Assembly: GCA_015486955.1 (NCBI GenBank)
Contig: WFQR01000169.1
Span: 1 to 33,158, forward strand
DNA: 33,158 nt
Source: Hippea sp.
GTDB lineage: Bacteria > Campylobacterota_A > Desulfurellia > Desulfurellales > Hippeaceae
Direction of reading: 5' to 3'
Shown: piece by piece, positions 347 to 29,091 of the stretch
How the letters are laid out: each line of letters begins with the position of its first letter
Numbering within the stretch: position 1 is the stretch's first letter
Position numbers and translations under genes: made by a program
Notes under the pieces: generated by a model
Database searches by the model: none
What the model saw: only the letters and a program-made list of their open reading frames with translations
Told to the model about the DNA's origin: nothing

Positions 347-1654
347 TCATGCCACCATCACCCGTTCTACCCAATTGTTATTCCTCCTTATAAGTATGGT
401 TTGTTTCAAGGGAACTTGTTTATAACTCTTACCTGCCAACCGTATGTAGTTGCCGTTTATGTCTTGGATGTAAGCATAGCTTCCGCTGGTGAATCCAGAA
501 ATAAACCCAACCTGTCCGTCTATTTTCACCTTATCCCATAAGCACCAAAGCTTTCCGTCTTTAGTTCTAACCTGTTTTGTGTTCTTTGAATTTCTCTTGG
601 CTTCTGTGTTGGGATTGGTTCTTCCTTTTCTCGGTGTAGCTTCGTGAAGACTGCGTTTTTTCTTCCTAACCTGTCTGATGATTGTTGTAGTGTTTATGTC
701 TTTTGGGTTAGTGAAACCTGTCATCGCTACAGCATCGTTGGCATGAGTTTTGGGTAATCCTATCTTGTTGCGGTGAATCTTAGTCAAATAGCCGTAGGTG
801 AATTTCACTCTATCTTTGAGTAACGCTTTGAGTTCCTTAATAAGTTGCAACCTGAATGAGTTTAGATAAGCAGGCTCTTTGTAGAGTTTAGGTTTTTTCA
901 GTTTAGCCATCAATTTGGGATTGCGGTGGATTTTCTCATGGCACTTTCTATGCAGAAGGGCAAGGTTGTCGGGTCTGTCTGTTCCACCCTTGCTTCTTGG
1001 GATAATGTGGTGTATTTGCCACCCGTTGCCGTTTCCACCGTATCCTTTTCCACACAACTGGCATTTCCCATTCTCCCGTGCAAGAAGATACTCCAATACA
1101 TTTGCATAACCGCAGAGGTTGCCTTTTTGATATTCTTCTCCTTCAACATCAGGGTTTTGTAGCTTTTGAGTATCAAAACGAGCTATCTCAACAATAACCT
1201 CAGGGTCAGGCAAGAATTTAGTTAACCTCTCTATCCACCTAACTGTGTGTTCGAACCTTGCCCTAACTGACGGAGGAAGCCAGCCCTCTGGTCTGCGTCG
1301 ATTAAGAAAGCGTGGCTTTCTATAAGGTGTTTTTCTGTATCTCCTGAACCTGCGGTATTCCCTGCGTTGAAGCAGTAACTTTGAAATATCCCTGCGAAGC
1401 CTTATCTCGCCTTTTTCAACAACCTTCCCGCCCAGTCCGTTGTCAACCACTATGGCAAAACCCATAGTAGTTCCTGTGTCAAACCCTACTTTGACTGGCT
1501 GAGTGTAGTGTGTAGTCTTATACAGCAGTTGGATGGTAAAAGGTCTGCGACAGACTACCCTTGCCAGTCCTTTCTTGAGAAGCCTTCTCACCTTCCCAAA
1601 CCTTCTGGTTGGCATCAGCGGTTTACCTTCCTCACTAATCACAAAAACCACCAT
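347..1654 (-). CDS. iscB: IscB RNA-guided endonuclease (RRXRR/PLMP domain, RuvC, HNH)
   Basis: N-terminal EEGKPLMPTRRFGKVRRLLKKGLARVV; RuvC-I KVGFDTGTTMGFAIV; Arg-rich bridge helix RREYRRFRRYRKTPYRKPRFLNRR; RuvC-II VIVEIARFD; HNH CQLCGK...WQIHHIIPRSKGGTDRPDNLALLHRKCHEKIH; RuvC-III KTHANDAVA. All catalytic motifs appear present. Confidence 0.92.
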   Translation of the reverse strand: MVVFVISEEGKPLMPTRRFGKVRRLLKKGLARVVCRRPFTIQLLYKTTHYTQPVKVGFDTGTTMGFAIVVDNGLGGKVVEKGEIRLRRDISKLLLQRREYRRFRRYRKTPYRKPRFLNRRRPEGWLPPSVRARFEHTVRWIERLTKFLPDPEVIVEIARFDTQKLQNPDVEGEEYQKGNLCGYANVLEYLLARENGKCQLCGKGYGGNGNGWQIHHIIPRSKGGTDRPDNLALLHRKCHEKIHRNPKLMAKLKKPKLYKEPAYLNSFRLQLIKELKALLKDRVKFTYGYLTKIHRNKIGLPKTHANDAVAMTGFTNPKDINTTTIIRQVRKKKRSLHEATPRKGRTNPNTEAKRNSKNTKQVRTKDGKLWCLWDKVKIDGQVGFISGFTSGSYAYIQDINGNYIRLAGKSYKQVPLKQTILIRRNNNWVERVMVA

Positions 1655-2000
1655 GCGGTAAGCCTCCTTACGGAGTTATTTGCCCCTCGACCAAATTATC
1701 TGGGCTTACCATGTCCAGCCCACTGTCCCACAAAAGTGGGGCTGTTTAGAACTGGACGACAGAGCTAAGGACTGGGGCATCATCCTTAGGTGTCATGACC
1801 CAGATAATCCAGCCCCATCTTACTTGGGGCTCGGTCTAATCAACCAGTTGCCCCCGTCCCTTACGGGACAAGCCCCTTCTGTGAAGGAGGGGTGGTTGAC
1901 GGGGTTTTCCCCACTGGGGGCACTGGGCTCAGGCAGGCCATCGGGCGGGGTTCACAGATGCTCAACGAGGATTCTGAGGCGGGCTGCCTGAGCCCAGTGA
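1655..2000 (-). ncRNA. Candidate IscB omega-RNA / HEARO RNA scaffold upstream of iscB
   Basis: GC-rich, multi-stem region directly 5' of iscB. Stems include CACTGGGCTCAGGCAG(1921-1936)/CTGCCTGAGCCCAGTG(1984-1999), ATTATCTGGG(1695-1704)/CCCAGATAAT(1799-1808), AGCCCC/GGGGCT, GTCCC-TTAC-GGGAC, CCCCTTC/GAAGGAGGGG. Position matches IscB omega-RNA (HEARO). Confidence 0.8.
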
Positions 2001-3509: not shown

Positions 3510-3887
3510 ATGGGTGCAGTTAGCGATATACAGAGCTACATAGAAAAACGCTGTCAAGAGGATGAGAGGTTTAAAATAGAATACGAAGCCGTGAGGCGGT
3601 TTATGGCTTTTTTAAAAAGCAAATACAAGGGCGAAGACTTGTTGAGGGTTTTGAGAATGCTGCCGATAGACAGATACGAATACGACAAAGAAGAAAACGT
3701 TCTTTGGGTGGGTTCACTCAAGGTAAAAGGGCACAAAGTTAAGGTATGCTGGGATGATAGCGATGGCTACCCTGCCTTTTGTGGGTTTGTTGAGGATATT
3801 GAGTGTGCAAAGACACAGGGGGAGACGGTTGAGGAGCTGATAGAGAATGTGAAAGAGGTGGTGGAGCTGTGCAGGGAAGATATTTAA
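3510..3887 (+). CDS. HicB-like antitoxin-family protein (N-terminal extension, HicB-like C-terminus)
   Basis: KVCWDDSDGYPAFCGFVEDIECAKTQGETVEELIENVKEVVELC resembles the HicB partial RNase H fold. Start placed at MGAVSD rather than the upstream TTG at 3390. Confidence 0.5.
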   Translation: MGAVSDIQSYIEKRCQEDERFKIEYEAVRRFMAFLKSKYKGEDLLRVLRMLPIDRYEYDKEENVLWVGSLKVKGHKVKVCWDDSDGYPAFCGFVEDIECAKTQGETVEELIENVKEVVELCREDI

Positions 3888-6800
3888 GATAGTTCTAAAG
3901 GCCTTAGCAATCCTACCGCCTTTGTAAACACTTCTCCACCGTTATCCATCCACTTCTTTATATCACCGACTATAATCACTTCTTCTTTTGACCTTGTAAC
4001 TGCAACATTCAAAAGATTTGGCTTTCTTGTAGCCCATCTAATTGCCCCAGCTTTAGCTCCACCTAATAAAATAATTACGATTTTATTCTCTTTACCTTGA
4101 AAAGTATGAACTGTTCCTATGTTCGTCCAATTCATACCCTTAAATTTTCTCTTCACGTCATCTAAAGTGATTCCTACAAAAGGAGATATTATATAGACTT
4201 TATCTAATTTGTCTTGGTACATTTTTCTCAGTATCTCAACAACCGCATTAACCTCAACATCAGACACATTCTTAAACCATGTTCTTGCCTCGTCAGTGTT
4301 AACGTTGACAAAATACCCTTTACCCGTAGCCTTTTTATCATCCGCACCGTGTATCATTGTGTTACTGTAGGCAATTGCATTGGCAATACTGAACGCAGGG
4401 TCTTTGCACCTGAAATGCACTCTTAATGGTATCCCTATTGGTATTTTAAATCCGTCCCTTTCTATTACTGCCTGTATGCTTGAAGCTCTATCCGCAAGAA
4501 CTTGAACAGACGTATCTATAAAGCCGTCTTCCGAGCTTGAAATTTGTATAGCTCTCTCACGCCCAGGCACTATTAAACCTACGTTAACTCCCAATTCACT
4601 TGCTATTCGCTCCACTTCTAAGGCTTTCTCAAGTGCGTTTCTCAAACTTTCTGGTATGGTGATAACAGGCTCAATCTGCAATGGATCACCCACTATTACT
4701 GCCCTTTTTGCCCTCATAAGTAAGCCAGTCGCATAATAGGGTATTCCTTGCCCAGCCTCGTCCACAATTACAAATCCAATGGAGTTGGGTTTTGTAAGAG
4801 CAGCAAACATGTTGGTTACAGAGTGAAACGTGGTGGATATAACAGGTGTTACAAACGCAAAGGATGTCCATGAATTTACAATAGCCTCAACGTCCTTATC
4901 TGTTATCTCCTCAGTTATATTGCTACCCTTGTTTAAGATACTAAAAAACAAGTCTATATTATGCTTAAACTCTTGGCGGTACTTCAGGACAAACGCATAG
5001 TGTAACCTTAAGGCTTTAAAAAACAGTTCTTTACGTTTTTCTTCCAAAGACCTTACGGCGTACGGCGTAAACAACTGCTTTTCTTTATCTGGGTAATTGT
5101 AAATAACCTCTGGCAAAGAAAGAAAATCAAGTTCCTGACTATTGATATTATCAATTCCAAGTTTCTCGAATAGGTTAATTAAGTTGTTCATTGTGGTTGA
5201 TTTTGCTTTGTATAGCCTTTCTTTTACGAGCAGTTGACTCTTAAGTTCGTTTAGATTGTTCTCTATTTGTTGGCCTTGTTCGATTAAAGCATCCAAATCT
5301 TTTTGCATTTGTGAGTATTCATTTACAATGCTCTTCACAAAAGACAGATTTTTAAGAATAGGTATTTTTGATAAACTGAAAGCCATCCTGTTGGCCTGTT
5401 TGTAGTTAGCTATGCCATTCTTTTTATCGTTTATCAACGTCGTTACCTCGTTTTTTTCACCTTCAAGCATGCGAGCTTTACTGCTCAACTGGGTGTATTC
5501 ATCTCTAATAGTCGAGTATTGGCTTTCTTCAGTATTAAAATAGTCTTTAATTGAAAAAGTGTTGGCTTCTATCATTTCATCAAAAGGAATCAGCTTTTTT
5601 ATTTCCTCAATTTCATTGTAAAGTTCAAGGAAATCTTTGGCATACTGCTTTAAATCTATGCTGTTTATTAGTAATCTCAACCTATCGCCTCTTTCTTTGG
5701 CCTGTTGGGTTTCCTCTTCGGAGGAGTAATCCACTTTCCAAAGGTATTTGAGCATAATCCCAAGTTCCCTGACAAATCCCAGATTGACCGACCTCAAGTT
5801 TTCTTTTTTGCCTAAAGCCACTGACACAGGACTCCAGCATTCATCATCAGCCAGGTTTTTAAAACACTCAGCAAAATTAGTAAAAATCGGCTCATTAAGG
5901 ATTTTATCTCTATATTCTGACACCTTATCCATTAATGGGAGCTCTTTCGAGACGTTTTCCACTGCCTTGTTATTACTTGAAGCCACCACAATATTGTAGT
6001 CACACAGCTTATCATTGGTAAACCTGTAAAACTTTCCAAAAGTAGAACTGTCCTCGCTGAGTATAGCATCATCGCCGAGTATGTCGTTTGCAAGATAGTA
6101 TGCTCGTTGGGTTACTATGTTAGCCACTATATCCCTGAGTATCGTTGTTTTTCCTGTTCCTGGCGGCCCGTTAACACTCACAATACCATTTTCGTTGCCT
6201 TTTAGAAATCTCCTATACACCTCTGACAGGGCTAAAGCTTGGTTAAAGAAAGATTTAGCCCAAGCTTCTGTTAACCACCTTGCAGGTGGGATGTTTTCTG
6301 GCTTAAGGGTTTGAGCTTCAGTGCCCTCACTAAGCATCTTTCTGTTGGGGTTGCCAAGAATATATTGTTTTAGGGTTTCACTTTCATTGAAATGAAGTTT
6401 AGCAAGATCGAGTTCACTCACAAAGAATGATGGTGGCTCATTGATTTCTTTATAAATTTCACCTAAAAATTTTTCATTTTCGACACTCTTTCCTGTTGAA
6501 ACAATGGGATAATCAAAATCATTTAAAGAGAAAAACTTGTCCAGTTTCATCCAGTTGAGGAAGTGTTCTACCATTTCCTTTGCTACTCTTTCATTTAACC
6601 CTTTTTGCTTCCTTTCGTAAACATTTGGCAGAAGTCCTGTGGATATAACGCCTATTTCAGAAGCAATCAATTTCATTGTGGTATCTGTGGTAAGCAGTAT
6701 GACATTGTCAGGAGAGTCGTACTCAGCCACATATTTAGCAAACCTGACAACTGCTTTATCTGTTTCGTCGAGTTTGCTATCTGGCTTAAGTTTTCTGTGT

Positions 6801-7765
6801 AATCCATCAAAATCAACTTTGCTTAATTCGCTGCTAAACAACTCATGAGAGAAAGATACAACTTTCACATGCTTACCGCTTATTCTATCTCCTTTGGGTG
6901 TGTATTCGTTTGTTCTTATTATTTCGTTAAGCCATATTAACCCTTGTTTTGCGAGATCTTTTCTTTTTTCTCTTTCTTCTTTACTTCCCTTACCACCTTC
7001 GTCTTTTAAAGTATCAAGCTCTTTAAGAACCTTATCATACACCCCTATTACAAAACTGTAATTGCTTTGCTTTAGGTAGTATAAGTAAGGGTTTTCTTTT
7101 CTTTTCCAAAATTCCGCAAGCTTCATAGCAAAGGAAGTATCAATTATCCAATAAGCGTAGGTGTTGTAATAGGTTTTAAACCTCTCTGCAAAGCGGTTGT
7201 TAAACAGCTCTATTTGTTTCATCATTTCGTTGGCACTAAGTAGGGTATCCTCTTTATTTAAAATTTTTGATACGTAAAACCAGAAGGGCTTAACCCTTAC
7301 TGCAAGCTGAGGTGTTTTCTCGCCGTCTTCGTTATTGTCTTGGCTTTTTCTATCATCTAAAATATCTTTTGGTAACCCCACAATCTTGTTATCAGAATTT
7401 GCCACAATCGAAAACAAATACATCCACTCATTTTCAATCTTATCGTAATTTTCTACATTAAACTTATCCGTGTTTATACCAAAAAATTCCAAAATCTTAT
7501 TGATTACTTTTTTCTTTCTGATAACTCCTATATGACTGCGACAAAAAAATGTTCTCTTTCTGTCAGCGGTATTCAGTTTTCCTCTAAATGATTTGAAAGC
7601 CTGATATGGTTCTGTATATATGCCGTTGCCTCTTTCTAATCTCTCATTTATCATTCTAACTTTTGCTTCTTCACCTTGCTCGTTGAATAAATCGACTTCT
7701 GGTAAATTCTGGAACACCTCGAAAACTTGCCAGAAATCGAGTAACTTTTTGATTGGTTCGCTCAT
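3884..7765 (-). CDS. Large SF1 (Upf1-like, AAA_11/AAA_12) helicase, 1293 aa
   Basis: Walker A VNGPPGTGKTTILRDIVANIV; motif II VIVDEAGQG; GDPLQIEPV; TVHTFQGKENKIVIILLGG; LNVAVTRSKEEVIIVGD; SD AAGGAGGCAGAGAAAATG. Confidence 0.88.
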   Translation of the reverse strand: MSEPIKKLLDFWQVFEVFQNLPEVDLFNEQGEEAKVRMINERLERGNGIYTEPYQAFKSFRGKLNTADRKRTFFCRSHIGVIRKKKVINKILEFFGINTDKFNVENYDKIENEWMYLFSIVANSDNKIVGLPKDILDDRKSQDNNEDGEKTPQLAVRVKPFWFYVSKILNKEDTLLSANEMMKQIELFNNRFAERFKTYYNTYAYWIIDTSFAMKLAEFWKRKENPYLYYLKQSNYSFVIGVYDKVLKELDTLKDEGGKGSKEEREKRKDLAKQGLIWLNEIIRTNEYTPKGDRISGKHVKVVSFSHELFSSELSKVDFDGLHRKLKPDSKLDETDKAVVRFAKYVAEYDSPDNVILLTTDTTMKLIASEIGVISTGLLPNVYERKQKGLNERVAKEMVEHFLNWMKLDKFFSLNDFDYPIVSTGKSVENEKFLGEIYKEINEPPSFFVSELDLAKLHFNESETLKQYILGNPNRKMLSEGTEAQTLKPENIPPARWLTEAWAKSFFNQALALSEVYRRFLKGNENGIVSVNGPPGTGKTTILRDIVANIVTQRAYYLANDILGDDAILSEDSSTFGKFYRFTNDKLCDYNIVVASSNNKAVENVSKELPLMDKVSEYRDKILNEPIFTNFAECFKNLADDECWSPVSVALGKKENLRSVNLGFVRELGIMLKYLWKVDYSSEEETQQAKERGDRLRLLINSIDLKQYAKDFLELYNEIEEIKKLIPFDEMIEANTFSIKDYFNTEESQYSTIRDEYTQLSSKARMLEGEKNEVTTLINDKKNGIANYKQANRMAFSLSKIPILKNLSFVKSIVNEYSQMQKDLDALIEQGQQIENNLNELKSQLLVKERLYKAKSTTMNNLINLFEKLGIDNINSQELDFLSLPEVIYNYPDKEKQLFTPYAVRSLEEKRKELFFKALRLHYAFVLKYRQEFKHNIDLFFSILNKGSNITEEITDKDVEAIVNSWTSFAFVTPVISTTFHSVTNMFAALTKPNSIGFVIVDEAGQGIPYYATGLLMRAKRAVIVGDPLQIEPVITIPESLRNALEKALEVERIASELGVNVGLIVPGRERAIQISSSEDGFIDTSVQVLADRASSIQAVIERDGFKIPIGIPLRVHFRCKDPAFSIANAIAYSNTMIHGADDKKATGKGYFVNVNTDEARTWFKNVSDVEVNAVVEILRKMYQDKLDKVYIISPFVGITLDDVKRKFKGMNWTNIGTVHTFQGKENKIVIILLGGAKAGAIRWATRKPNLLNVAVTRSKEEVIIVGDIKKWMDNGGEVFTKAVGLLRPLELS

Positions 7766-10373: not shown

Positions 10374-10446
10374 TTATATATAGGGCTGTTTTTTTAACAA
10401 AATTACCGATTTTTCTTATTTGTATGCGGGGTTAGGGAAGTATGTA
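10374..10446 (-). promoter_or_regulatory. Shared upstream module, copy A (upstream of the 77-aa genes)
   Basis: CTATATATA / TTTTTAACAAAATTACCGATTTTT / TTTGTATGCGGGGTTAGGGAAGTATGTA; near copy at 21993-22071. Confidence 0.6.
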
Positions 10447-11417: not shown

Positions 11418-12298
11418 TTTTTAACCTCTTATAGTAGGTTTGAAATGACACGTTAAACGGATCTGATCCAACAAACCGCTGGGCCTTTTAATCTCTTATA
11501 GAAACTTTGAAACTCGCCACAGAACCTACAGTGGGCGGTGGAGATAGTGCTTTTAACCTCTCATAGTAGGTTTGAAACCAATCTTAGCAACCTCAACCGC
11601 CCTCTCCTCAAGAAACTTTTAATCTCTCATAGTAGGTTTGAAACGTCATATATCCAATATGTATTCGGAGTTATATATCCCCTTTTAACCTCTCATAGTA
11701 GTTTTAAAACTTTTCGCACCCGTGAGGTCTCGGAGTTGATTTAGGACTTTTAACCTCTCATAGTAGTTTTAAAACACCGCGATACGACTCAGTGGGGGAA
11801 ATGTTCCTTTACTTTTAATCTCACATAGTAGCTCTAAAATGGGTGTTCCTTTTTTCACCCAAATGTTTCGAAACTTCAAACTTTTAATCTCACATAGTAG
11901 CTTTAAAACCACTACGGCGATCACATGAAGGTTGAAGTCAGGGGCACTTTTAATCTCACATAGTAGCTTTAAAACTCCGCATGGGCTTCCGCCTTGATTT
12001 TATCCAGCTTTCTTTTAACCTCATATAGTAGTTTAAAACGCGTAAGCGTCTTTAAGCACGTCGTAAACAAACTTACTTTTAACCTCACATAGTAGTTTTA
12101 AAACCACAGAAAAAGCGAGAGAGGAGCTAAGAGAGATCACTTTTAACCTCACATAGTAGTTTTAAAACAACCTCAGGTAGATGACGAGCCTTAGGCAAAA
12201 CAACCTTTTAACCTCACATAGTAGTTTTAAAACTTTTCTTTATCACGCCCCGCACAGCCTAACCACCCACTTTTAACCTCACATAGTAGTTTTAAAAC
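11418..12298 (-). CRISPR. CRISPR array 1, 14 repeats (29 bp), leader on the right
   Basis: Consensus (+) CTTTTAA[T/C]CTC[T/A]CATAGTAG[T/C]TTTAAAAC, spacers ~34-38 nt. Leftmost repeats degenerate (11418, 11486); rightmost repeats uniform. Confidence 0.97.
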
Positions 12299-12396
12299 CC
12301 ATTTTACCCATTTCCATAATTGCTTTCATTATAACAACTATAGAAATTCTCCTTTCAGAAAATCCCTTAAAAATTCTCGAACTTCCAGTAGTGCAT
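12299..12396 (-). promoter_or_regulatory. CRISPR leader of array 1
   Basis: CCATTTTACCCATTTCCATAATTGCTTTCATTATAACAACTATAGAAATTCTCCTTTCAGAAAATCCCTTAAAAATTCTCGAAC is homologous to sequences right of arrays 2 and 3. Confidence 0.85.
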
Positions 12397-13086
12397 TTAG
12401 CAAACTTCCACTATCAACTCCCCAAAACCGTAGCCGATCCTGTAGCCCACAAATCTTGGAATTAAGTAATTTGAAATTACCCTGCACCTAACGGCTGGGA
12501 AGTGAATGTTTACATCCTCTTTTGGGTAAGGCACATAAAAATACTTAATGTCGCTGACATCCACTTTTAACTGCTTCCACTGAGATTTTGGAACTTCAAT
12601 GCCTAAATAGTGTTTTATTTGGTGAAAGACCGAATCCACAATAAAGTCCTTGAGAAATGCCCTCAGCTTTTCCTCGTTGCCCTCCACATCCTTTTTAATC
12701 TCTTTAGTTTCCTCACTGTTGCTTGCTAAGATGATCGGCGTTCTTGTTTTGTAAACTGCAAATGCTGAGGCTATTTTTGGCATGGCGAAGTTTTCATTTC
12801 TTAAACTGGCATTTATTACCTTCAGCGTCTTTGTCTTTGTTTTTATCTCTTTCTTGTAGGCAGCATTTTTAAGATAGTTCATCATTTCAATGTCATTTGT
12901 GTAGTTAACCACCTCAGCATACCCACTGGTTGTAGGCCATGTGTAAATGAGAACTGGCGGAATGTGTCTGTGCCACAATATTTTTTCTGTGTATTCTTCT
13001 CTCTTGTTAACAGAGGCAAGGAAGTTTCTAATAGTTCTCGGAGTTAAGTCCTCAGCAAAACCGTCTAACTTTAATACCAACTTCAT
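12397..13086 (-). CDS. cas6: Divergent Cas6/Csf5-like crRNA endoribonuclease candidate
   Basis: Between two arrays in a cas locus; ~230 aa; AFAVYKTRTPIIL and C-terminal FVGYRIGYGFGELIVEV resembling a Cas6 glycine-rich loop. SD AAAGGAGGTG. Confidence 0.65.
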   Translation of the reverse strand: MKLVLKLDGFAEDLTPRTIRNFLASVNKREEYTEKILWHRHIPPVLIYTWPTTSGYAEVVNYTNDIEMMNYLKNAAYKKEIKTKTKTLKVINASLRNENFAMPKIASAFAVYKTRTPIILASNSEETKEIKKDVEGNEEKLRAFLKDFIVDSVFHQIKHYLGIEVPKSQWKQLKVDVSDIKYFYVPYPKEDVNIHFPAVRCRVISNYLIPRFVGYRIGYGFGELIVEVC

Positions 13087-13098
13087 AAAACACCTCCT

Positions 13099-14254
13099 TT
13101 TTTAATCTCTTATAGTGGTTTTAAAACTATACTCCGTGCAGGGGGAACATATATCCCATGCGGTTTTTAACCTCTCATAGTGGTTTTAAAAACTTGCAGG
13201 ATCGATTACGCCCAGATAGCGGAAAAGGCTTTTTAACCTCTTATAGTGGTTTTAAAACCTTCGAGTGGCAAAACTCATCGGGACTGCTCTTCCGCCAGCC
13301 ACCTCACTACTTTTAGCCTCTTATAGCAATCTTAGGGAAAGATGACTTACCCTATACCGCCGAAACCGACGGTTTTTTTAATCTTTTATAGAAGGTTTAA
13401 AGTCCTCAATACTCTTGCGTATTGTGTGGGTCTTATAAACTTTTAATCTCTTATAGCAGATTTAAAACGATGAGGCTGATAACGAAAGAGATAACTGGAA
13501 TTTCTTTTAATCTCTCATAGTAGCTTTCAAACGCGTTATTGAGCTTCTAACATCGCTGGCACTCGCCGTTACTTTTAATCTCTCATAGTAGCTTTAAAAC
13601 TCGCGTCTGTCATGGACATGCTAACGTCGGTTGTCCCCTTTTAATCTCACATAGTAGGTTTGAAACTTCCAATCGTCTCTACAAGGCAACACATTACCTT
13701 GCTTTTAATCTCTTATAGTAGTTTTGAAACATGTTTATACCCCTGAGAGCGATTCTGGGCGTTTTTCTTTTAATCTCTCATAGTAGCTTTGAAACGAAAG
13801 AACAAGAAGAAAAACTGAAAGAATACCCTGTCGCTTTTAATCTCTTATAGTAGCTTTAAAACATTGCCCCTGCGAGTGTCGTGTCGGTTTGGGATAGAGC
13901 TTTTAATCTCTCATAGTAGTTTTAAAACGTGGTTGCTTATTCTCGGGCTTGCTCTCGGGGGAACTTCTTTTAATCTCTCATAGTAGTTTTAAAACATATA
14001 CATGAAAGGAGGCTTACACTATGAAGAAGTTCTTTTAATCTCTCATAGTAGTTTTAAAACATGTCTAACCTGTTTTGCCTAACGGCTGGCACAGGCTTTT
14101 AATCTCTCATAGTAGTTTTAAAACTACTCAACTGTTATCCAGATTCTCTGAGAAAAATATCTTTTAATCTCTCATAGTAGTTTTAAAACACAAAAGCAAA
14201 AGCGCGGTTTCTGGTCTCGGCTGTTCTTTTAATCTCTCATAGTAGTTTTAAAAC
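13099..14254 (-). CRISPR. CRISPR array 2, 18 repeats (29 bp), leader on the right
   Basis: Repeats from 13099-13127 to 14226-14254; several degenerate leader-distal copies (e.g. CTTTTAGCCTCTTATAGCAATCTTAGGGA near 13310, TTTTTAATCTTTTATAGAAGGTTTAAAGT near 13375); leader-proximal six copies identical. Confidence 0.97.
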
Positions 14255-14463
14255 CCATTTTTCTTGTCTCCATAATTGCTTTCATTACAACAACTACAAA
14301 GACCCCCCTTCTTAAAAATCCGCTCAAAAATTCTCCAACCCCCAGTCGTGCATTAGCCACTATACTATCGTCCATCGATCCAACGACTATCAACTATCAT
14401 CTATCTTCCCCACCAACCACCCCACTATTAACACCCAGAATGGGCTATGTAAAAGATCGTGCC
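14255..14463 (-). promoter_or_regulatory. CRISPR leader of array 2 plus extended homologous flank
   Basis: CCATAATTGCTTTCATTACAACAACTACA...CCACTATACTATCG...CAACCACCCCACTATTAAC...ATGGGCTATGTAAAAGATCGTGCC, shared with 19870-20083. Confidence 0.85.
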
Positions 14464-14478
14464 TAACCTAAACTGGCA

Positions 14479-15960
14479 CTAATTTAAGTAGAAGTGCAAC
14501 ATTGACCTAACGCCCAAGTCGTATTTCCTGAAGAAGGCATGTAGCCTTTCCATCATTTCTAAGCTTTCTTTCGCTTTGTTTCTTATTGGAAGCAAGCCAG
14601 TGGTTTTGCTTATGGTTCTTGAAGTTAAAAGCGTCTTTGTCGCCTCACGCCCAGTTAGTTTAGCATAGTCCTCAAGCAAAGCTTTCGCCTCAACCAACGC
14701 CTCATCCAACAACTGCTTATCAATGTAAAGCGTATTTGAATCGTCCCTGCAAACAACGGGCATAAGGCTTGATATGGTCGCTTTGCATCCGCCTTTGTAG
14801 AAAATGTGCTGCCTGTTGCTGCTCAATCTCCACCCTACATGGTAAGGCAGCCTGTCCCCTTTTAGAAAATCAGTTATCAGCTCTTTATACTGTCCCCATT
14901 CATCACCGTTATACTTTCTCCACTCATCAGGGTGGCTCGACCTGCTGACTTTCCTTGCCATAGCCCAGCCGTCCTCATAGAACACCGCCATACCAGCTTT
15001 CCTGTAAACTTCGTCTAAAGCCTTTAGCGATTTCACACAGTCAAAGCATATCACGTTGCCTTCCTGTAGTTCTTGAAAGTCTGTAAACTTACTGCTTGCC
15101 ACGTCTTTTATTCGGCTTGCACGGACACCTTTGTTCACGTCTTTGCCACAGAAAACACACCTACCTTGAGTTATGTGTTTCTCTGTTTTTTCCGCAGTTT
15201 TCTTTGGCAGTTCAAAGTGTTTACCCATAAGCATTGAAGGAGTAATTGTCTCTTCAGGAATAACCACGTTTCCCTTTGCTGGTGATTTGTCCTCAAGCTC
15301 AACAAGTGCCGTGTGCGGCATGAAGCAGGGAACAACCCCATGTTTGAGCCAGTAGGGTGGAGTGGGCCTGTAGTAGGCAACCCTGTCCGTTTCTACCTCT
15401 TCTTTCCACTCAAGCACAGATAAAGGTTTAGAGGGAGTGTAGGGGTTGAGGAAGAAGCCCCTATCGTCGGCATCCTCAACCTCAACACCCTTAACAATTC
15501 CCCAACCGTATTTGCCTTTCTTTCCCAAATACTTCACATTGGACACAAGGCTCTTGAGCTTGTCTGGATCGGCGGATATGTAGAAATGCACCTTTGAAAT
15601 GGTGAGGCGTTCATAGTAGTTCAGCAGGTTTTTGTAAGTTCCCGATCCACCTTTTATCTGGTGGTTGTATTCAAACACGCTGTTGCCCATAATTCTTCTA
15701 AACCAGTCATCACTTAAACTCCTCTTTAGTGCATCACCGTAAGGCAAAACCGCCTCGTCGTCATCGACATACCATATTGACCCAGATAAGGTGTTGTTTC
15801 TCTTTTCTATGAAGTCCGTTTCCTTGTCTTTTAATGGATCATGGCTACTGTCGTAAAAACTCCCGTAAATCAGCGAGAGCAGTACTGCATCAATTGTTGT
15901 AAATCTATGCAAAAGCGGTGGCGTGGCAAAGTGAAAGGTTACTTTCAAGGGCCTAATCAT
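14479..15960 (-). CDS. Csf3 (Cas5-like)-Csf1 (Cas8-like, zinc finger) fusion of a type IV-A-like CRISPR-Cas system
   Basis: N-terminal Csf3-like MIRPLKVTFHFATPPLL...YLGKKGKYGWGIVKGVEVED...YRPTPPYWLKHGVVPCFMP; C-terminal Csf1-like zinc finger CVFC(~15148-15159)...CFDC(~15036-15047) and GWRLSSNRQHIFYKGG. Single uninterrupted ORF next to csf2 and dinG. Confidence 0.75.
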   Translation of the reverse strand: MIRPLKVTFHFATPPLLHRFTTIDAVLLSLIYGSFYDSSHDPLKDKETDFIEKRNNTLSGSIWYVDDDEAVLPYGDALKRSLSDDWFRRIMGNSVFEYNHQIKGGSGTYKNLLNYYERLTISKVHFYISADPDKLKSLVSNVKYLGKKGKYGWGIVKGVEVEDADDRGFFLNPYTPSKPLSVLEWKEEVETDRVAYYRPTPPYWLKHGVVPCFMPHTALVELEDKSPAKGNVVIPEETITPSMLMGKHFELPKKTAEKTEKHITQGRCVFCGKDVNKGVRASRIKDVASSKFTDFQELQEGNVICFDCVKSLKALDEVYRKAGMAVFYEDGWAMARKVSRSSHPDEWRKYNGDEWGQYKELITDFLKGDRLPYHVGWRLSSNRQHIFYKGGCKATISSLMPVVCRDDSNTLYIDKQLLDEALVEAKALLEDYAKLTGREATKTLLTSRTISKTTGLLPIRNKAKESLEMMERLHAFFRKYDLGVRSMLHFYLN

Positions 15961-15983
15961 TTTCTACCCCCATGCACTATTTT

Positions 15984-17279
15984 TTATCTCTTCTTGCTTT
16001 TGCTTCCCTTCTCCCCGTCATTGACCTCCAGATACCTCAGCGGTAGGGTAAATGTCTCATAATCCATATTTTCAAGCCATTCATTGAAGGCTTCGACCGC
16101 ATCGCTTTCAAGTTTATCCTGCGGGTTTATGTAAAGATCTGGCAAGCCAAAGATGTTTGCGTCAACGCTCTTGCCTATTAGTAGGTTTATTCCGTTTCTC
16201 GAGACAGACAATTTAACCCTTCCAAATCCTCTTTTTTCAAAAGACCCAAATGCAAACCTGTAAACATTGCCATCAGCATCGACTAACGACTGTTGAGCGA
16301 GCACTCTCAAACTCTCAAGAAGCAAGCCGTATTCAACAAGAGACAAAGGCTCTTTTGTGGATATTTCACCGCTCAAGATTGACCCTGCGGGAATATAATA
16401 AGTGTCAATTATGTTTTGTATGGTTTGTTTCTTTTTGTTGCCACCACCGTTGTCTTGACTGTCATCCGTCTCCGCTTCGGTGTTTGCTGTGGTGCTTTTT
16501 GTTTCCTCTCTTTCTTTCTTATCCTCTCCCACAAACTTTAACCACCTTTTCCTGCTCTCTTCACTAAGGAATAATTTGGCAAATACACTGCCTTTAACGA
16601 TGTCATCCACCACAATCACAACTTCGCTGTTGTAGTATCTGCTTGTGTATGTGTAAAATGGGCTTAATTTATTTTTATTCGCTTCCTCTTTGTTTTTATC
16701 TTTGTCTTTTGTATCCTTCAGATCAGCCCACACTCTCAATGTCTCGTATATCGCTTCCCTGTCTTCAAGGTCTATGACAGGGTTAGACGGCATTAGATCG
16801 GTGATTATCAGCTTTGAAGGAATATACAAGGTCATGCCGTATAAAGAGGCAAAAGGTATCCTGCTTGTCACTTCCTTAATGGCAAGGTATTTTGCATACT
16901 CACCGCTTCCCTGAGGGTCAGAAATCCTCATAACATTTCCACCGCCAACGCTGTATAAGAAAAACAAGGAGAGCACGTCCGCATTTTTTAGTCCGCCTTC
17001 ATTTCCCTTGCTTGCTTCCTCAAGCTTACGCAGGTAACCTTTATCCCAAGCCTTTGAGAAGATTAAGTAAGTGCCTGCACGCCTCAACATACCGCCAAGA
17101 CCGTTCGAAGAAAAAATGGGAATATCAACAAAGACTGTGTTCAAACCTACACTTCTCAAGTCATCAGGAATGTCTCTCAATACCACCGTTCTACTTTTAA
17201 GCTGTGCTTCCCTGTCAACTTGTGCTAAAGGGGTTAGCAACTCAGCCTTAATGTCCAACACTCCTGCAAACTTACTCAT
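15984..17279 (-). CDS. csf2: Csf2 (Cas7-like backbone subunit) of a type IV-A-like system
   Basis: RAMP-like TVFVDIPIFSSNGLGGMLRRAGTYL; YIPAGSILSGEISTKEPLSLVEYGLLLESLRVLAQQSLVDADGNVYRFAFGSFEKRGFGRVKLSV; located between dinG and csf3-csf1. Confidence 0.82.
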   Translation of the reverse strand: MSKFAGVLDIKAELLTPLAQVDREAQLKSRTVVLRDIPDDLRSVGLNTVFVDIPIFSSNGLGGMLRRAGTYLIFSKAWDKGYLRKLEEASKGNEGGLKNADVLSLFFLYSVGGGNVMRISDPQGSGEYAKYLAIKEVTSRIPFASLYGMTLYIPSKLIITDLMPSNPVIDLEDREAIYETLRVWADLKDTKDKDKNKEEANKNKLSPFYTYTSRYYNSEVVIVVDDIVKGSVFAKLFLSEESRKRWLKFVGEDKKEREETKSTTANTEAETDDSQDNGGGNKKKQTIQNIIDTYYIPAGSILSGEISTKEPLSLVEYGLLLESLRVLAQQSLVDADGNVYRFAFGSFEKRGFGRVKLSVSRNGINLLIGKSVDANIFGLPDLYINPQDKLESDAVEAFNEWLENMDYETFTLPLRYLEVNDGEKGSKSKKR

Positions 17280-17296
17280 CTCAAAACCTCCTTTTT

Positions 17297-19180
17297 CTAA
17301 AGTTTTATTGTTCTTATTTCTGAGCTTCTCTCCTCAATGAAGGGTTTTAGCTTCTTAAACCTATCCCCATCGTAAATTCTGTGATCAAGCACATAAAACT
17401 CGCCTTTGTCCTCTGGCGTCCTCAACAGCCTTCCCATCCACTGCCTAAAATTGATGATCATTTCCCCCTCATAAAGGGAGTAGTTTTTACTGTTGAGCCA
17501 CTTGAGTGTGATAACAGGAAACGGCAGCCTTGCTATGTAGAGCTTTTCAAGTTTTTTGCCAGGCAGGTCAACGCCTATGCCGTAATGCCTTACGGCGATG
17601 AGCAGCTTTACGTGCATTTTCTCAAAAATTTTTAAAACGCTTCTCATGGTTTTGTCTGGTGCAGAAACTATCATCTTCTCTTTGTCAATGTGTCTTAAGA
17701 GGGCATTGTATATCATATCAGCCTGTAGGTAACTGCCAGTCAACACAAGCGATTTCTTATCGTCAAAAGTTTTAGCCACTATATCCGCTATGTAATTTGC
17801 CCACTCTTCCAGTTTTGCTTTGTCCTCTTCAGTCATATCGTAAACGCTTCCCGTTTTGGGTGGTTGAGGTATTTTGTCTTCGGGTAAATCTTTAGGTGGT
17901 AAATAGGTAATTTGGTTTTTGTCCCATAGATAGGATACAGGATAAAGGAATACGCCCATATTTTTGGGGATAGAAAGGGTCAGCTTTGCGGATTCTTCCT
18001 GCTTGTTTCTGTTCACGTAAACCGTTGCGGACATGCCGATAATTTTGGGCTTCACTTTCCAGAAGTTCACTTGCAGTTGTTTTTTTGCATCCACCCTTGA
18101 AAACTCAATCGACGGATAGCCTTTACTCGGTGAGTATTTTAAATAACCTAAATTGCCTGTTCCTTTTGTAACGCTCATCAATTCCTCTATCTCCTGAACA
18201 AGGGCGTAGAAGTATGGGACTTTAATGTTCTCTTGAAAAACCTTATTCAAAGCATTTTTTAGAGGATTTAGTAGGGCTCTGGTGGTGAATTGCTCTTTGT
18301 TTATGGTTTCCCTCAAATCTCTGACAAACCGCTTATACTCATCGCTATCATACTTAAAGTATGCACCAATCCTTTCTTTTCTTGAGTGTGTCTTCGTGAA
18401 AGTGAACATCTTTGTGGATAAACTGGTGAGGATTTGAGTTAGCTTTTTTGATATATGCCCATTTGCATGATCCAAAAAGTTCGATATTAACCATGCTAAC
18501 CTAAAAGGTGAAAAAGAGCGTGTAAACAGCGTGTCAGATACCAGCGGTATGGTGTGCACCTCGTCAAGGATAATGTGATACTTGTCTATGTTTTCCTTAA
18601 AGGAAGCCGACGAAGTGTTTTTGAAGAGAAAATTGGATAGAAGGTAAAAATGGTTGGTCACGGCAATGTCGTAGTCATCAAAAGTCCCAGCCTGCTTTAT
18701 TCGTTCATCAGCCTTAATAAGCTCCCTTAAGGGTTTTTCCATATCTGGGTCTTTTAAGGTCTCTTCTATAAATGTATCCACAAGCCACCATACTCGCCCC
18801 TCAAGAGTGTCTTTGTTCTTTTCCATCTCCTCTATGTATGCATTGATGCCATCGCAGAATTGAGATAAGCTGTCTTTGTTTTCCTTTAATTTGTTGATGT
18901 CTATGTAGTTATCCTTACCAAAAACAACCCCTACCTTTGCATTAGGGATCAGCTTTTTTAAGGTGCTCTCAAGCTCATAAGCAAGTTTATTGGTGCTTGT
19001 GGAAACAATAACTCTGTTTCCGTCAAGCAGGTTTTTAGCTAACTTGCCTATTACGTATGATTTCCCAAAACCTGTAGGGGCTTCCAAGAGAATGGGATGG
19101 TCGTTTTTGCTGTAGGCGTCTAACAGTATTCTAACCACAGAGTTTTGGACTCTTTCCCTTTCTTCAATTGAGTACCCCAT
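17297..19180 (-). CDS. dinG: DinG-family SF2 helicase (Csf4-like, CasDinG)
   Basis: Walker A ILLEAPTGFGKSYVIGKLAKNLL; VTNHFYLLSNFL; DEVH box ILDEVHTIP; motif VI NFRQWMGRLLRTPEDKGEFYVLDHRIY; SD AAGGAGGTGTTTT ATG. Confidence 0.88.
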   Translation of the reverse strand: MGYSIEERERVQNSVVRILLDAYSKNDHPILLEAPTGFGKSYVIGKLAKNLLDGNRVIVSTSTNKLAYELESTLKKLIPNAKVGVVFGKDNYIDINKLKENKDSLSQFCDGINAYIEEMEKNKDTLEGRVWWLVDTFIEETLKDPDMEKPLRELIKADERIKQAGTFDDYDIAVTNHFYLLSNFLFKNTSSASFKENIDKYHIILDEVHTIPLVSDTLFTRSFSPFRLAWLISNFLDHANGHISKKLTQILTSLSTKMFTFTKTHSRKERIGAYFKYDSDEYKRFVRDLRETINKEQFTTRALLNPLKNALNKVFQENIKVPYFYALVQEIEELMSVTKGTGNLGYLKYSPSKGYPSIEFSRVDAKKQLQVNFWKVKPKIIGMSATVYVNRNKQEESAKLTLSIPKNMGVFLYPVSYLWDKNQITYLPPKDLPEDKIPQPPKTGSVYDMTEEDKAKLEEWANYIADIVAKTFDDKKSLVLTGSYLQADMIYNALLRHIDKEKMIVSAPDKTMRSVLKIFEKMHVKLLIAVRHYGIGVDLPGKKLEKLYIARLPFPVITLKWLNSKNYSLYEGEMIINFRQWMGRLLRTPEDKGEFYVLDHRIYDGDRFKKLKPFIEERSSEIRTIKL

Positions 19181-19247: not shown

Positions 19248-19869
19248 CTTCCAACCTCTTATAGAAGCTTTGGATTTCTAATAACCTACAGGGTATTTCT
19301 AATAACCTACACTTTTAGCCTCTTATAGAAACTTTGAAAACACAGGTGAATTTGAACGAAAGTCTTTATCACTGCTTCTTTTAATCTCTTATAGTAGGTT
19401 TGAAACCAATCTTAGCAACCTCAACCGCCCTCTCCTCAAGGAACTTTTAATCTCTCATAGTAGCTTTAAAACGTTGTTTCCTAAAGGCGTGGAGCTTTTC
19501 TTTTCATGTCAGCACTTTTAATCTCTCATAGCAGTTTAAAAACAAAAAGGAGCTATTTTGGGGTTCAATTTGCAAGTTCTTTTAATCTCTCATAGCAGCT
19601 TTGAAAACAGATTTGTTAAGGGAGGGTAAGCTATGAGTGCAAAACTTTTAATCTCTCATAGTAGTTTTAAAACGTTGGTGTCGATGAACTTGGCTCATCT
19701 TTAATCAGAACTTTTAACCTCACATAGTAGTTTTAAAACTTTTATCTCTGATGTGCTTAGCCGTCGTTTTCGCTTTTAACCTCACATAGTAGCTTTAAAA
19801 CTATGCTGTGATGTTGCTGCCAGTACTGATAAAACAACGTCTTTTAACCTCACATAGTAGCTTTGAAAC
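19248..19869 (-). CRISPR. CRISPR array 3, 10 repeats (leftmost highly degenerate), leader on the right
   Basis: Repeats at 19248 (degenerate), 19312, 19378, 19444, 19515, 19579, 19645, 19711, 19773 and 19841-19869. Confidence 0.96.
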
Positions 19870-20083
19870 CCATTTTACCTATTTCCATAATTGCTTTCAT
19901 TACAACAACTACAGAAACACTCCTTTCAGAAAATCTCTTAAAAATTCTCCAACCTTCAGTCGTGCATAACCACTATACTATCGATCCATCGATCCAACGA
20001 CTAACGACTAACGACTATCTTCCCCTCCAACCACCCCACTATTAACGCCCTAATGGGCTATGTAAAAGATCGTGCCATTGCAG
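19870..20083 (-). promoter_or_regulatory. CRISPR leader of array 3 plus extended flank shared with array 2
   Basis: CCATTTTACCTATTTCCATAATTGCTTTCATTACAACAACTACAGAAAC... and CCACTATACTATCGATCCATCG...ATGGGCTATGTAAAAGATCGTGCC. Confidence 0.85.
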
Positions 20084-21992: not shown

Positions 21993-22071
21993 CTCTCTAT
22001 ATATATAGAGTCACTTTTTAACAAAATTGCCGATTTTCCCCATTTGTATGCGGGGTTAGAGAAGTATGTAG
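21993..22071 (-). promoter_or_regulatory. Shared upstream module, copy B (upstream of ssb)
   Basis: CTATATATATAGAG / TTTTTAACAAAATTGCCGATTTT / TTTGTATGCGGGGTTAGAGAAGTATGTA; near copy of 10374-10446. Confidence 0.6.
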
Positions 22072-27615: not shown

Positions 27616-27838
27616 CGATCAATAAGAATACTATTCCCTGTTTTGCTCCTCAAACTTCTCTTTCTCTGCTCTAATTCTATCCTGCAGTTCCCAAAGTTCA
27701 ATTGATATTGCAAGAAGATTGAAAACTTGACAAATTATAAAAGATGCCTTATTTTGCCAAAAATAATCTTTTACGGAATTCGGGCAGTAACCCTGCGCAA
27801 ACTATAAGGTACAGGGCGAACCCCGAGAGTTGTTTATA

Positions 27839-28741
27839 ATGGAAGAAAACGACATTTTAATACTTGATAAATCTGAAATTAGTTTCTTTGATTTAGAATA
27901 CATACTGCCTAAATTAGAGAAAAGTAAAAGAGTTGAATTAATCGGAACTAAGTATTTTATAGATCCTTCCTTTTGGGCAATTCTCAGGTGTGAGAAACTA
28001 AGAAGAGCAAGAATGGAAAATAATTTAGAAATAATGGCAGACGAAGGTTTTAAAAAATCCAAAGCTTACGATTACTTATTGAAAATAACTGATAGGGAAT
28101 TTTCTTACACTACAGTACCAATAAAAGATTTTGCCCCAACAAATGTCGACGATGCAGATATTTTTGCAGAGGATTTTATAGATTTAATGCCTGTGGAAGA
28201 CTATAAACTATCCTCTTTTCTGAAGTATATAGTAAGAGAGCTTGTAACAAACGCTATAGACCACTCGGACAGCATAATAAGCACAATATGCGCTGGTCAA
28301 ATGTTTCCTAATCTTAAAGAAAGCGAAATAGTTGTTGTAGACGCAGGTGTGGGCTTTCTCAATACATTAAAAAGAAAATACAAAGAATTAAAAAGTGATG
28401 ATGACGCTATAGAAAAGGCTCTGCAAAAAGGTGTCACAGGCTACACAAAAAGATCAAATAGATACCATTTATACAACAAGAATATTGGTTTTGGTCTTTA
28501 TGTGATATCAAGAATAATTGAAAGTTTTGGTGGCACACTCAAAATAATATCAAGAAAGGGAAGCCTTACTTTAAAAGATGGGCATATATTAGATAAAACC
28601 TTATTTAAAGAAAACCTTTGGAGAGGCAGCATAGTAATTGTGCGACTAAAATACGACAAGTTTTTTGATATAACTTTAGAAGATTTTCTAAAAGTTATCA
28701 GAAAAGAGGACAGAGAAAAAGAGGAAGAAGATATCTTTTAA
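27839..28741 (+). CDS. GHKL (HATPase_c)-domain protein
   Basis: N-box-like YIVRELVTNAIDHSDS; VVVDAGVGFLNTL; GFGLYVISRIIESFGGTLKI. Track start is 27830; MEENDIL at 27839 is an alternative. Confidence 0.75.
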   Translation: MEENDILILDKSEISFFDLEYILPKLEKSKRVELIGTKYFIDPSFWAILRCEKLRRARMENNLEIMADEGFKKSKAYDYLLKITDREFSYTTVPIKDFAPTNVDDADIFAEDFIDLMPVEDYKLSSFLKYIVRELVTNAIDHSDSIISTICAGQMFPNLKESEIVVVDAGVGFLNTLKRKYKELKSDDDAIEKALQKGVTGYTKRSNRYHLYNKNIGFGLYVISRIIESFGGTLKIISRKGSLTLKDGHILDKTLFKENLWRGSIVIVRLKYDKFFDITLEDFLKVIRKEDREKEEEDIF

Positions 28742-29091
28742 GCAAAAGCGTGCATGAACGGCATTTCACCTATCTTTTCTTTATTCTCTTTATGCCATCT
28801 GTTACTGTAGTCTACAACCCAATTAAGAACTTCTTTGATTTCTCCGTTGTAATTAACAGCCTTTACATTCTGTTTTATAAAATCCCTTCCGTAGTATCGA
28901 GTGAATATGCCGATAATCTCGTCTCCAAAGCTCTGAGTTATACCTTCTATGCCAGCAAAATCCAAAGTCACGGTATTACCTTCTGCAAAAACTTTCTCCA
29001 TCATCTCTCTTATCTTTTCACCACTCGGTCTTGTTCCTAAAAAACTCACACATGGAAATATATCTTTAATTCTTATTACAACATTTTTCAT
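28738..29091 (-). CDS. STAS-like DUF4325 protein
   Basis: GTRPSGEKIREMMEKVFAEGNTVTLDFAGIEGITQSFGDEIIGIF; 3' end overlaps the convergent GHKL gene by 4 bp. Confidence 0.75.
   Translation of the reverse strand: MKNVVIRIKDIFPCVSFLGTRPSGEKIREMMEKVFAEGNTVTLDFAGIEGITQSFGDEIIGIFTRYYGRDFIKQNVKAVNYNGEIKEVLNWVVDYSNRWHKENKEKIGEMPFMHAFA

What the first reader, a model, noticed from the sequence alone, without database searches (positions are those of the whole stretch)
14479..19180. Type IV-A-like CRISPR-Cas effector with a Csf3-Csf1 fusion
Seen: a DinG-like helicase, a Csf2/Cas7-like gene and a single 493-aa ORF in one co-directional unit flanked by CRISPR arrays. Established: type IV-A systems carry csf1, csf2, csf3, csf5/cas6 and dinG (csf4) and are typically found on conjugative plasmids or ICEs. 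Inference: the 493-aa ORF has an N-terminal Csf3-like half (GKKGKYGWGIV; RPTPPYW) and a C-terminal Csf1-like half (CxxC...CxxC zinc finger; NRQHIFYKG), so the large and Cas5-like subunits appear fused. As far as I know csf1 and csf3 are normally separate genes, so this may define a new type IV-A variant with reduced gene count.
Basis: partly seen in the sequence, partly recalled or inferred. Interest (0 to 1): 0.9.

Follow-up and report, generated by a model that had tools for sequence, protein, structure and literature searches.

The report
Type IV-E CRISPR with fused Csf3-Csf1
A plasmid-like piece of DNA from a Desulfurellales-like bacterium carries a rare but already described kind of CRISPR system (type IV-E), in which two effector proteins are joined into one, and its stored guides match other mobile DNA elements of the same genus, which suggests it fights rival elements.

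Summary
Profile searches put the N-terminal half on solved IV-A Csf3 chains and the C-terminal half on solved IV-A Csf1 chains. The fusion is not an assembly error: it recurs in five other records, including a complete Campylobacter concisus plasmid. The targets are an element with an F-type TraC gene and an integrase-bearing element also present in the host MAG. All three protospacers have 5'-CCA on the PAM side. In passing, two other IV-E loci lie next to cas1-cas2. Best reading: a nuclease-free, crRNA-guided silencer of rival mobile elements, with the two halves of the PAM reader joined in one chain. The structure model was too poor to use; nothing has been tested experimentally.

The parts
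14479..15960 (-). csf3-csf1 fusion (Cas5-Cas8), 493 aa; Csf3 half about residues 1-221, variable linker about 222-260, Csf1 half about 260-493 with CxxC...CxxC
   Evidence: PDLC01726 Csf3-Csf1_0_IVE 1.1e-47; TIGR03116 and TIGR03114; halves find solved Csf3 and Csf1 chains
15984..17279 (-). csf2 (Cas7), 431 aa, longer than two relatives (336 and 358 aa) through insertions
   Evidence: PDLC01724 Csf2 5.5e-15; TIGR03115 4.3e-5; alignment A7
17297..19180 (-). dinG/csf4 helicase, 627 aa, Walker A EAPTGFGKS and DEVH box, no HNH domain found
   Evidence: PDLC01732 Csf4_3_IVE 1.8e-56; TIGR03117 1.4e-33; Pfam
12397..13086 (-). cas6 of IV-E type, 229 aa, between arrays 1 and 2; His39 invariant in the four members aligned
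   Evidence: PDLC01712 Cas6_1_IVE 2.4e-26; alignment A6
11418..12298 (-). CRISPR array 1, 14 repeats, leader end at the right
13099..14254 (-). CRISPR array 2, 18 repeats, leader end at the right
19248..19869 (-). CRISPR array 3, 10 repeats (the leftmost degenerate), leader end at the right
12299..12396 (-). leader of array 1, homologous to the other two leaders
   Evidence: repeat family D7
14255..14463 (-). leader of array 2 plus a stretch also found beside array 3
   Evidence: repeat families D7, D8, D18
19870..20076 (-). leader of array 3 plus the same stretch
   Evidence: repeat families D7, D8, D18
12105..12139 (-). spacer matching 35/35 a 190-aa gene of an integrase-bearing element in the host MAG (G000:C33) and in G002:C24; 5' flank CCA
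14125..14160 (-). spacer matching 35/36 the primase-helicase gene of a TraC-bearing element (G006:C192); 5' flank CCA
19544..19578 (-). spacer matching 33/35 near the start of an integrase gene (G005:C92) and 30/35 just upstream of the integrase in G000:C33; 5' flank CCA in both

Best explanation
This is a type IV-E CRISPR-Cas system carried by a conjugative element (plasmid or integrated) of a Desulfurellales-like bacterium. Cas6 cuts the array transcripts into crRNAs. Csf2 forms the backbone on the crRNA, and the fused Csf3-Csf1 caps its 5' end. The fused chain supplies both halves of the PAM reader that are separate subunits in IV-A (the Cas5 thumb and the Cas8 zinc finger), here reading 5'-CCA. 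Target binding opens an R-loop, and DinG is recruited to unwind DNA, which blocks transcription or replication of a rival mobile element without cutting it. Shown here: gene content, fusion, arrays, matched targets, the shared CCA flank and the conjugative setting. Inferred from IV-A: complex assembly, PAM reading by the fused chain, DinG action and silencing without cleavage.
For: All four Cas proteins match type IV models, and IV-E models score best for the fusion, DinG and Cas6. Halves of the fusion find solved IV-A Csf3 and Csf1. The C. concisus plasmid pICON holds the same gene set; its fusion matches the IV-E model at 2.5e-253. Three spacers match mobile DNA of the same genus, all with 5'-CCA; three random trinucleotides would be identical with p of about 5e-4. 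One target contig has TraC_F_IV (6.6e-69) and the window itself has TraH (2.8e-52). No nuclease domain was found in the cas genes. [quoted passage not shown]
Against: No activity, expression or complex has been tested. The AlphaFold model failed (mean pLDDT 45.6), so the fold of the fusion is inferred from profiles only. The CCA motif rests on three spacers. The fully matched target lies in the same MAG bin, which may mix strains. The C. concisus fusion has lost most of the zinc-finger cysteines, so the finger is not essential in all IV-E members.
Confidence: 0.8

Rival explanations
1. A new type IV-A variant: IV-A in which csf1 and csf3 fused recently in this lineage.
For: DinG, Csf2 and arrays as in IV-A; the 2025 classification counts only three type IV subtypes (PMC12669027), so formally the fusion would sit inside IV-A or as an unranked variant.
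Against: The fusion is shared with C. concisus, a Campylobacterales-labelled MAG and two unclassified MAGs at 24-32% identity, so it is old; it was proposed as IV-E years ago.
Confidence: 0.1
2. Two genes joined by assembly or sequencing error.
For: The source is a MAG of 188 contigs.
Against: The same fusion is in five other records, one of them a complete plasmid; no stop inside the frame.
Confidence: 0.01
3. A system that mainly silences elements resident in its own host rather than fending off incoming rivals: one spacer fully matches, and another matches 30/35, an integrase-bearing element in the host's own MAG, which a nuclease-free effector could tolerate.
For: G000:C33 carries both protospacers with CCA.
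Against: The MAG may mix strains; related elements occur in other genomes of the genus, so ordinary competition explains the same data; another spacer matches an element found only in another genome.
Confidence: 0.15
4. A decaying system that no longer acts.
For: Degenerate repeats at the trailer ends; no cas1 found in the genome.
Against: All ORFs intact, leader-proximal repeats uniform, spacers with near-perfect matches to elements of the genus.
Confidence: 0.05

Closest known systems
Type IV-E CRISPR-Cas (Campylobacter concisus pICON; PADLOC Csf3-Csf1_0_IVE)
   Same: Fused Csf3-Csf1, Csf2, IV-E Cas6, DinG, one array, plasmid-borne
   Different: 24% identical in the fusion; here three arrays, dinG is co-directional instead of divergent, the zinc finger is kept, and Csf2 is longer
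Type IV-A (P. aeruginosa, P. oleovorans, K. pneumoniae)
   Same: Csf2 backbone, DinG helicase, Cas6, array, no nuclease, spacers against mobile elements
   Different: csf1 and csf3 are separate genes; reported PAM is 5'-AAG/AAN, not CCA (PMC8175902, PMC11519345)
Type IV-E next to cas1-cas2 in two unclassified MAGs (L006, L007)
   Same: 506-aa fusion, DinG, Csf2, Cas6, two arrays
   Different: Adjacent type II-like cas1-cas2, 36-nt repeats, mostly 30-31-nt spacers; two protospacers flanked 5' by TTTT and TTTG

Membership tests
Type IV-E | Single protein with a Csf3 part followed by a Csf1 part | tested here: met
Type IV-E | Type IV Csf2 (Cas7) | tested here: met
   PDLC01724 5.5e-15
Type IV-E | DinG of the IV-E branch | tested here: met
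   PDLC01732 is the best model, 1.8e-56; no tree was built
Type IV-E | IV-E Cas6 and CRISPR array | tested here: met
   PDLC01712 2.4e-26; 42 repeats
Type IV-E | Carried on a mobile element | tested here: met
   TraH, ArdC, SSB, RecT in the window; plasmid or ICE not resolved
Type IV-E | crRNA-guided interference | not testable with these tools
   needs an assay
Type IV-A | Separate csf1 and csf3 genes | tested here: not met
   one ORF without a stop
Type IV-A | DinG helicase in the locus | tested here: met
Type IV-A | 5'-AAG/AAN PAM (reported for some IV-A, not strictly defining) | tested here: inconclusive
   three protospacers have 5'-CCA instead; small sample
Type IV-A2 (DinG-HNH) | HNH domain on DinG | tested here: not met
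   Pfam finds only helicase domains
Type IV-C | Cas10-like large subunit with HD domain | tested here: not met
   only the zinc-finger stretch resembles Cas10 IVc

The most novel reading that the evidence does not exclude
IV-E is a distinct effector design in which one chain reads the PAM (5'-CCA here) and stably silences rival mobile elements, even ones resident in the same host, and some IV-E lineages own an adaptation module (cas1-cas2), so that IV-E can be a complete adaptive system.
Probability: 0.2. Interest if true: 0.6.

Novelty: new member of a known kind. Interest (0 to 1): 0.33.

Why it matters
Type IV-E is rare, and the papers that could be read here report no PAM, targets or structure for it. 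This locus gives 39 spacers, three clear targets and a candidate PAM, so a plasmid-interference test can be designed at once. The fusion joins the two subunits that read the PAM together in IV-A, which offers a scaffold with one gene fewer for programmable silencing. As a claim of a new variant it does not hold.

Tried and rejected
Relatives in viral contigs: none. Relatives in phage records: none. Three spacers as 20-25-mers in viral contigs: none. About half of the spacers (19) against plasmids: none. The C. concisus array against plasmids and phages: no convincing target. Ten of the Cas1 loci of the genus and family were checked for arrays: those found have other repeats, so no in-trans adaptation partner was identified. 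The founding paper on IV-E (gkz1197) and PMC8658065 are not held. Weak hits of short stretches (E above about 1e-4) were treated as chance.

Full report
Observation. The arrays are real: 42 repeats of 29 nt and 39 spacers, mostly of 35-38 nt, in three arrays. Each array has a homologous leader at its right end and degenerate repeats at its left end, so all three most likely read on the minus strand, like the cas genes. Arrays 1 and 3 share one spacer with one mismatch. A fourth cas gene, Cas6 (12397-13086), lies between arrays 1 and 2.

Identity. The PADLOC library has a model named Csf3-Csf1_0_IVE; it matches the 493-aa protein at 1.1e-47. The DinG matches Csf4_3_IVE at 1.8e-56 and the Cas6 matches Cas6_1_IVE at 2.4e-26. 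NCBIfam gives Csf3 in the N-terminal part and Csf1 in the C-terminal part, both under the curated cut-offs. Profiles of the two halves, built from six and five relatives, were run against solved structures: the N-terminal half finds IV-A Csf3 (7xfz_B 5.3e-7; 8rc3_F 5.7e-6) and the C-terminal half finds IV-A Csf1 (8rc3_G 1.5e-5; 7xfz_A 5.6e-5; 9n3y_A 6.5e-5).

Distribution. The same fusion occurs in a MAG labelled Desulfurellales (47-49% identity), a MAG labelled Campylobacterales, two unclassified MAGs (nearly identical to each other), and on C. concisus plasmid pICON, where dinG, fusion, cas6, csf2 and an array of about 20 repeats lie together; a further contig is cut off within the Csf3 part (L009). 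The Desulfurellales MAG belongs to the same family as the window's genome, hence 'Desulfurellales-like' for the host. Eight other genomes of the window's own genus lack the fusion, so it comes and goes. The literature mentions a csf1-csf3 fusion variant (PMC8175902) and the proposal of IV-E (PMC7434947). The 2025 classification counts three type IV subtypes (PMC12669027), so IV-E is a proposed name and not an official one. The founding paper itself could not be read.

Targets. Array DNA was searched against 25 genomes of the phylum. Spacer 14125-14160 matches 35/36 in G006:C192, inside a 655-aa Toprim/AAA primase-helicase; the same contig has TraC of an F-type system (6.6e-69). Spacer 12105-12139 matches 35/35 in G002:C24 and in the host's own MAG, G000:C33. 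Spacer 19544-19578 matches 33/35 in G005:C92 and 30/35 in G000:C33, just upstream of the integrase start in C33. C33 has a tyrosine integrase (6.8e-38), and C24 and C92 hold parts of its relatives. In the crRNA orientation set by the leaders, all protospacers are preceded by CCA: TCCA, CCCA and CCCA. CCA makes up 1.2% of trinucleotides in these contigs; three random trinucleotides would be identical with a chance of about 5e-4. A fourth spacer (19674-19710) resembles another site of the primase-helicase gene with 9 mismatches and a CCT flank; this is suggestive only. The repeat end next to a spacer is AAG, so the arrays themselves do not carry CCA.

Setting. The window has TraH, ArdC, SSB, RecT and a SNase-like protein, which points to a conjugative plasmid or ICE. 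No integrase or relaxase was found among the ORFs scanned, so which of the two is open.

Mechanism. In IV-A structures Cas5 and the zinc-finger domain of Cas8 form a two-part PAM reader, and DinG loads on the displaced strand (PMC11519345). The fusion joins exactly these two parts; all else in the locus is as in IV-A, without a nuclease. The best reading is therefore crRNA-guided, nuclease-free silencing of rival mobile elements. Steps shown: genes, arrays, targets, flank. Steps inferred: complex, PAM reading, DinG action, outcome.

In passing. Two other IV-E loci (L006, L007) sit beside cas1 (7.3e-99 to a type II Cas1 model) and cas2, while a 2021 review says type IV systems lack adaptation genes (PMC8175902) and a 2024 review says that in many cases they contain no adaptation module (PMC11656645). 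Two of the L007 spacers match contigs of its own MAG, with TTTT and TTTG as 5' flanks. No cas1 was found in the window's own genome, whose MAG is 82% complete.

Limits. The AlphaFold model was poor. The PAM rests on three spacers. The host is a MAG. No experiment was at hand.

Noticed in passing
L007:232-8383 and L006:542-8475: A type IV-E locus (506-aa fusion, dinG, csf2, cas6, two arrays) directly followed by type II-like cas1 and cas2, i.e. a IV-E system with an apparent adaptation module of its own; two L007 spacers match contigs of the same MAG with 5' TTTT and TTTG.
   Followed up: partly
window 347-1654 (-) and 1675-1900 (-): IscB RNA-guided endonuclease (NF040563 6.1e-99) with its HEARO/omega RNA (RF02033) just upstream, on the same contig as the CRISPR system.
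   Followed up: no
window 14217-14463 and 19832-20076: Leader plus about 100 bp, ending in an identical 25-mer AATGGGCTATGTAAAAGATCGTGCC, duplicated on both sides of the dinG-csf2-fusion block; suggests that the arrays arose by duplication.
   Followed up: no
window 10391-10446 and 22015-22070: A 56-nt intergenic element, 91% identical in both places, upstream of minus-strand genes (a small ORF and ssb); perhaps a shared promoter of the mobile element.
   Followed up: no
L004:11992-13425: The C. concisus IV-E fusion has lost three of the four zinc-finger cysteines kept in the other full-length members.
   Followed up: partly
window 3884-7765 (-): 1293-aa protein with a PIN_4 domain and an SF1 helicase part, with weak similarity to helicases of defence systems; unknown function.
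   Followed up: no
window 27830-28741 (+) and 28738-29091 (-): HATPase protein and a convergent STAS-like DUF4325 protein overlapping at their ends; possible regulatory pair.
   Followed up: no
L058:8322-10199: TraC of the targeted element is interrupted by an intein-like stretch.
   Followed up: no
window 13996-14031, 19608-19644: Two spacers that look like ribosome-binding site plus ATG of unknown genes; too few to claim a preference for gene starts.
   Followed up: no
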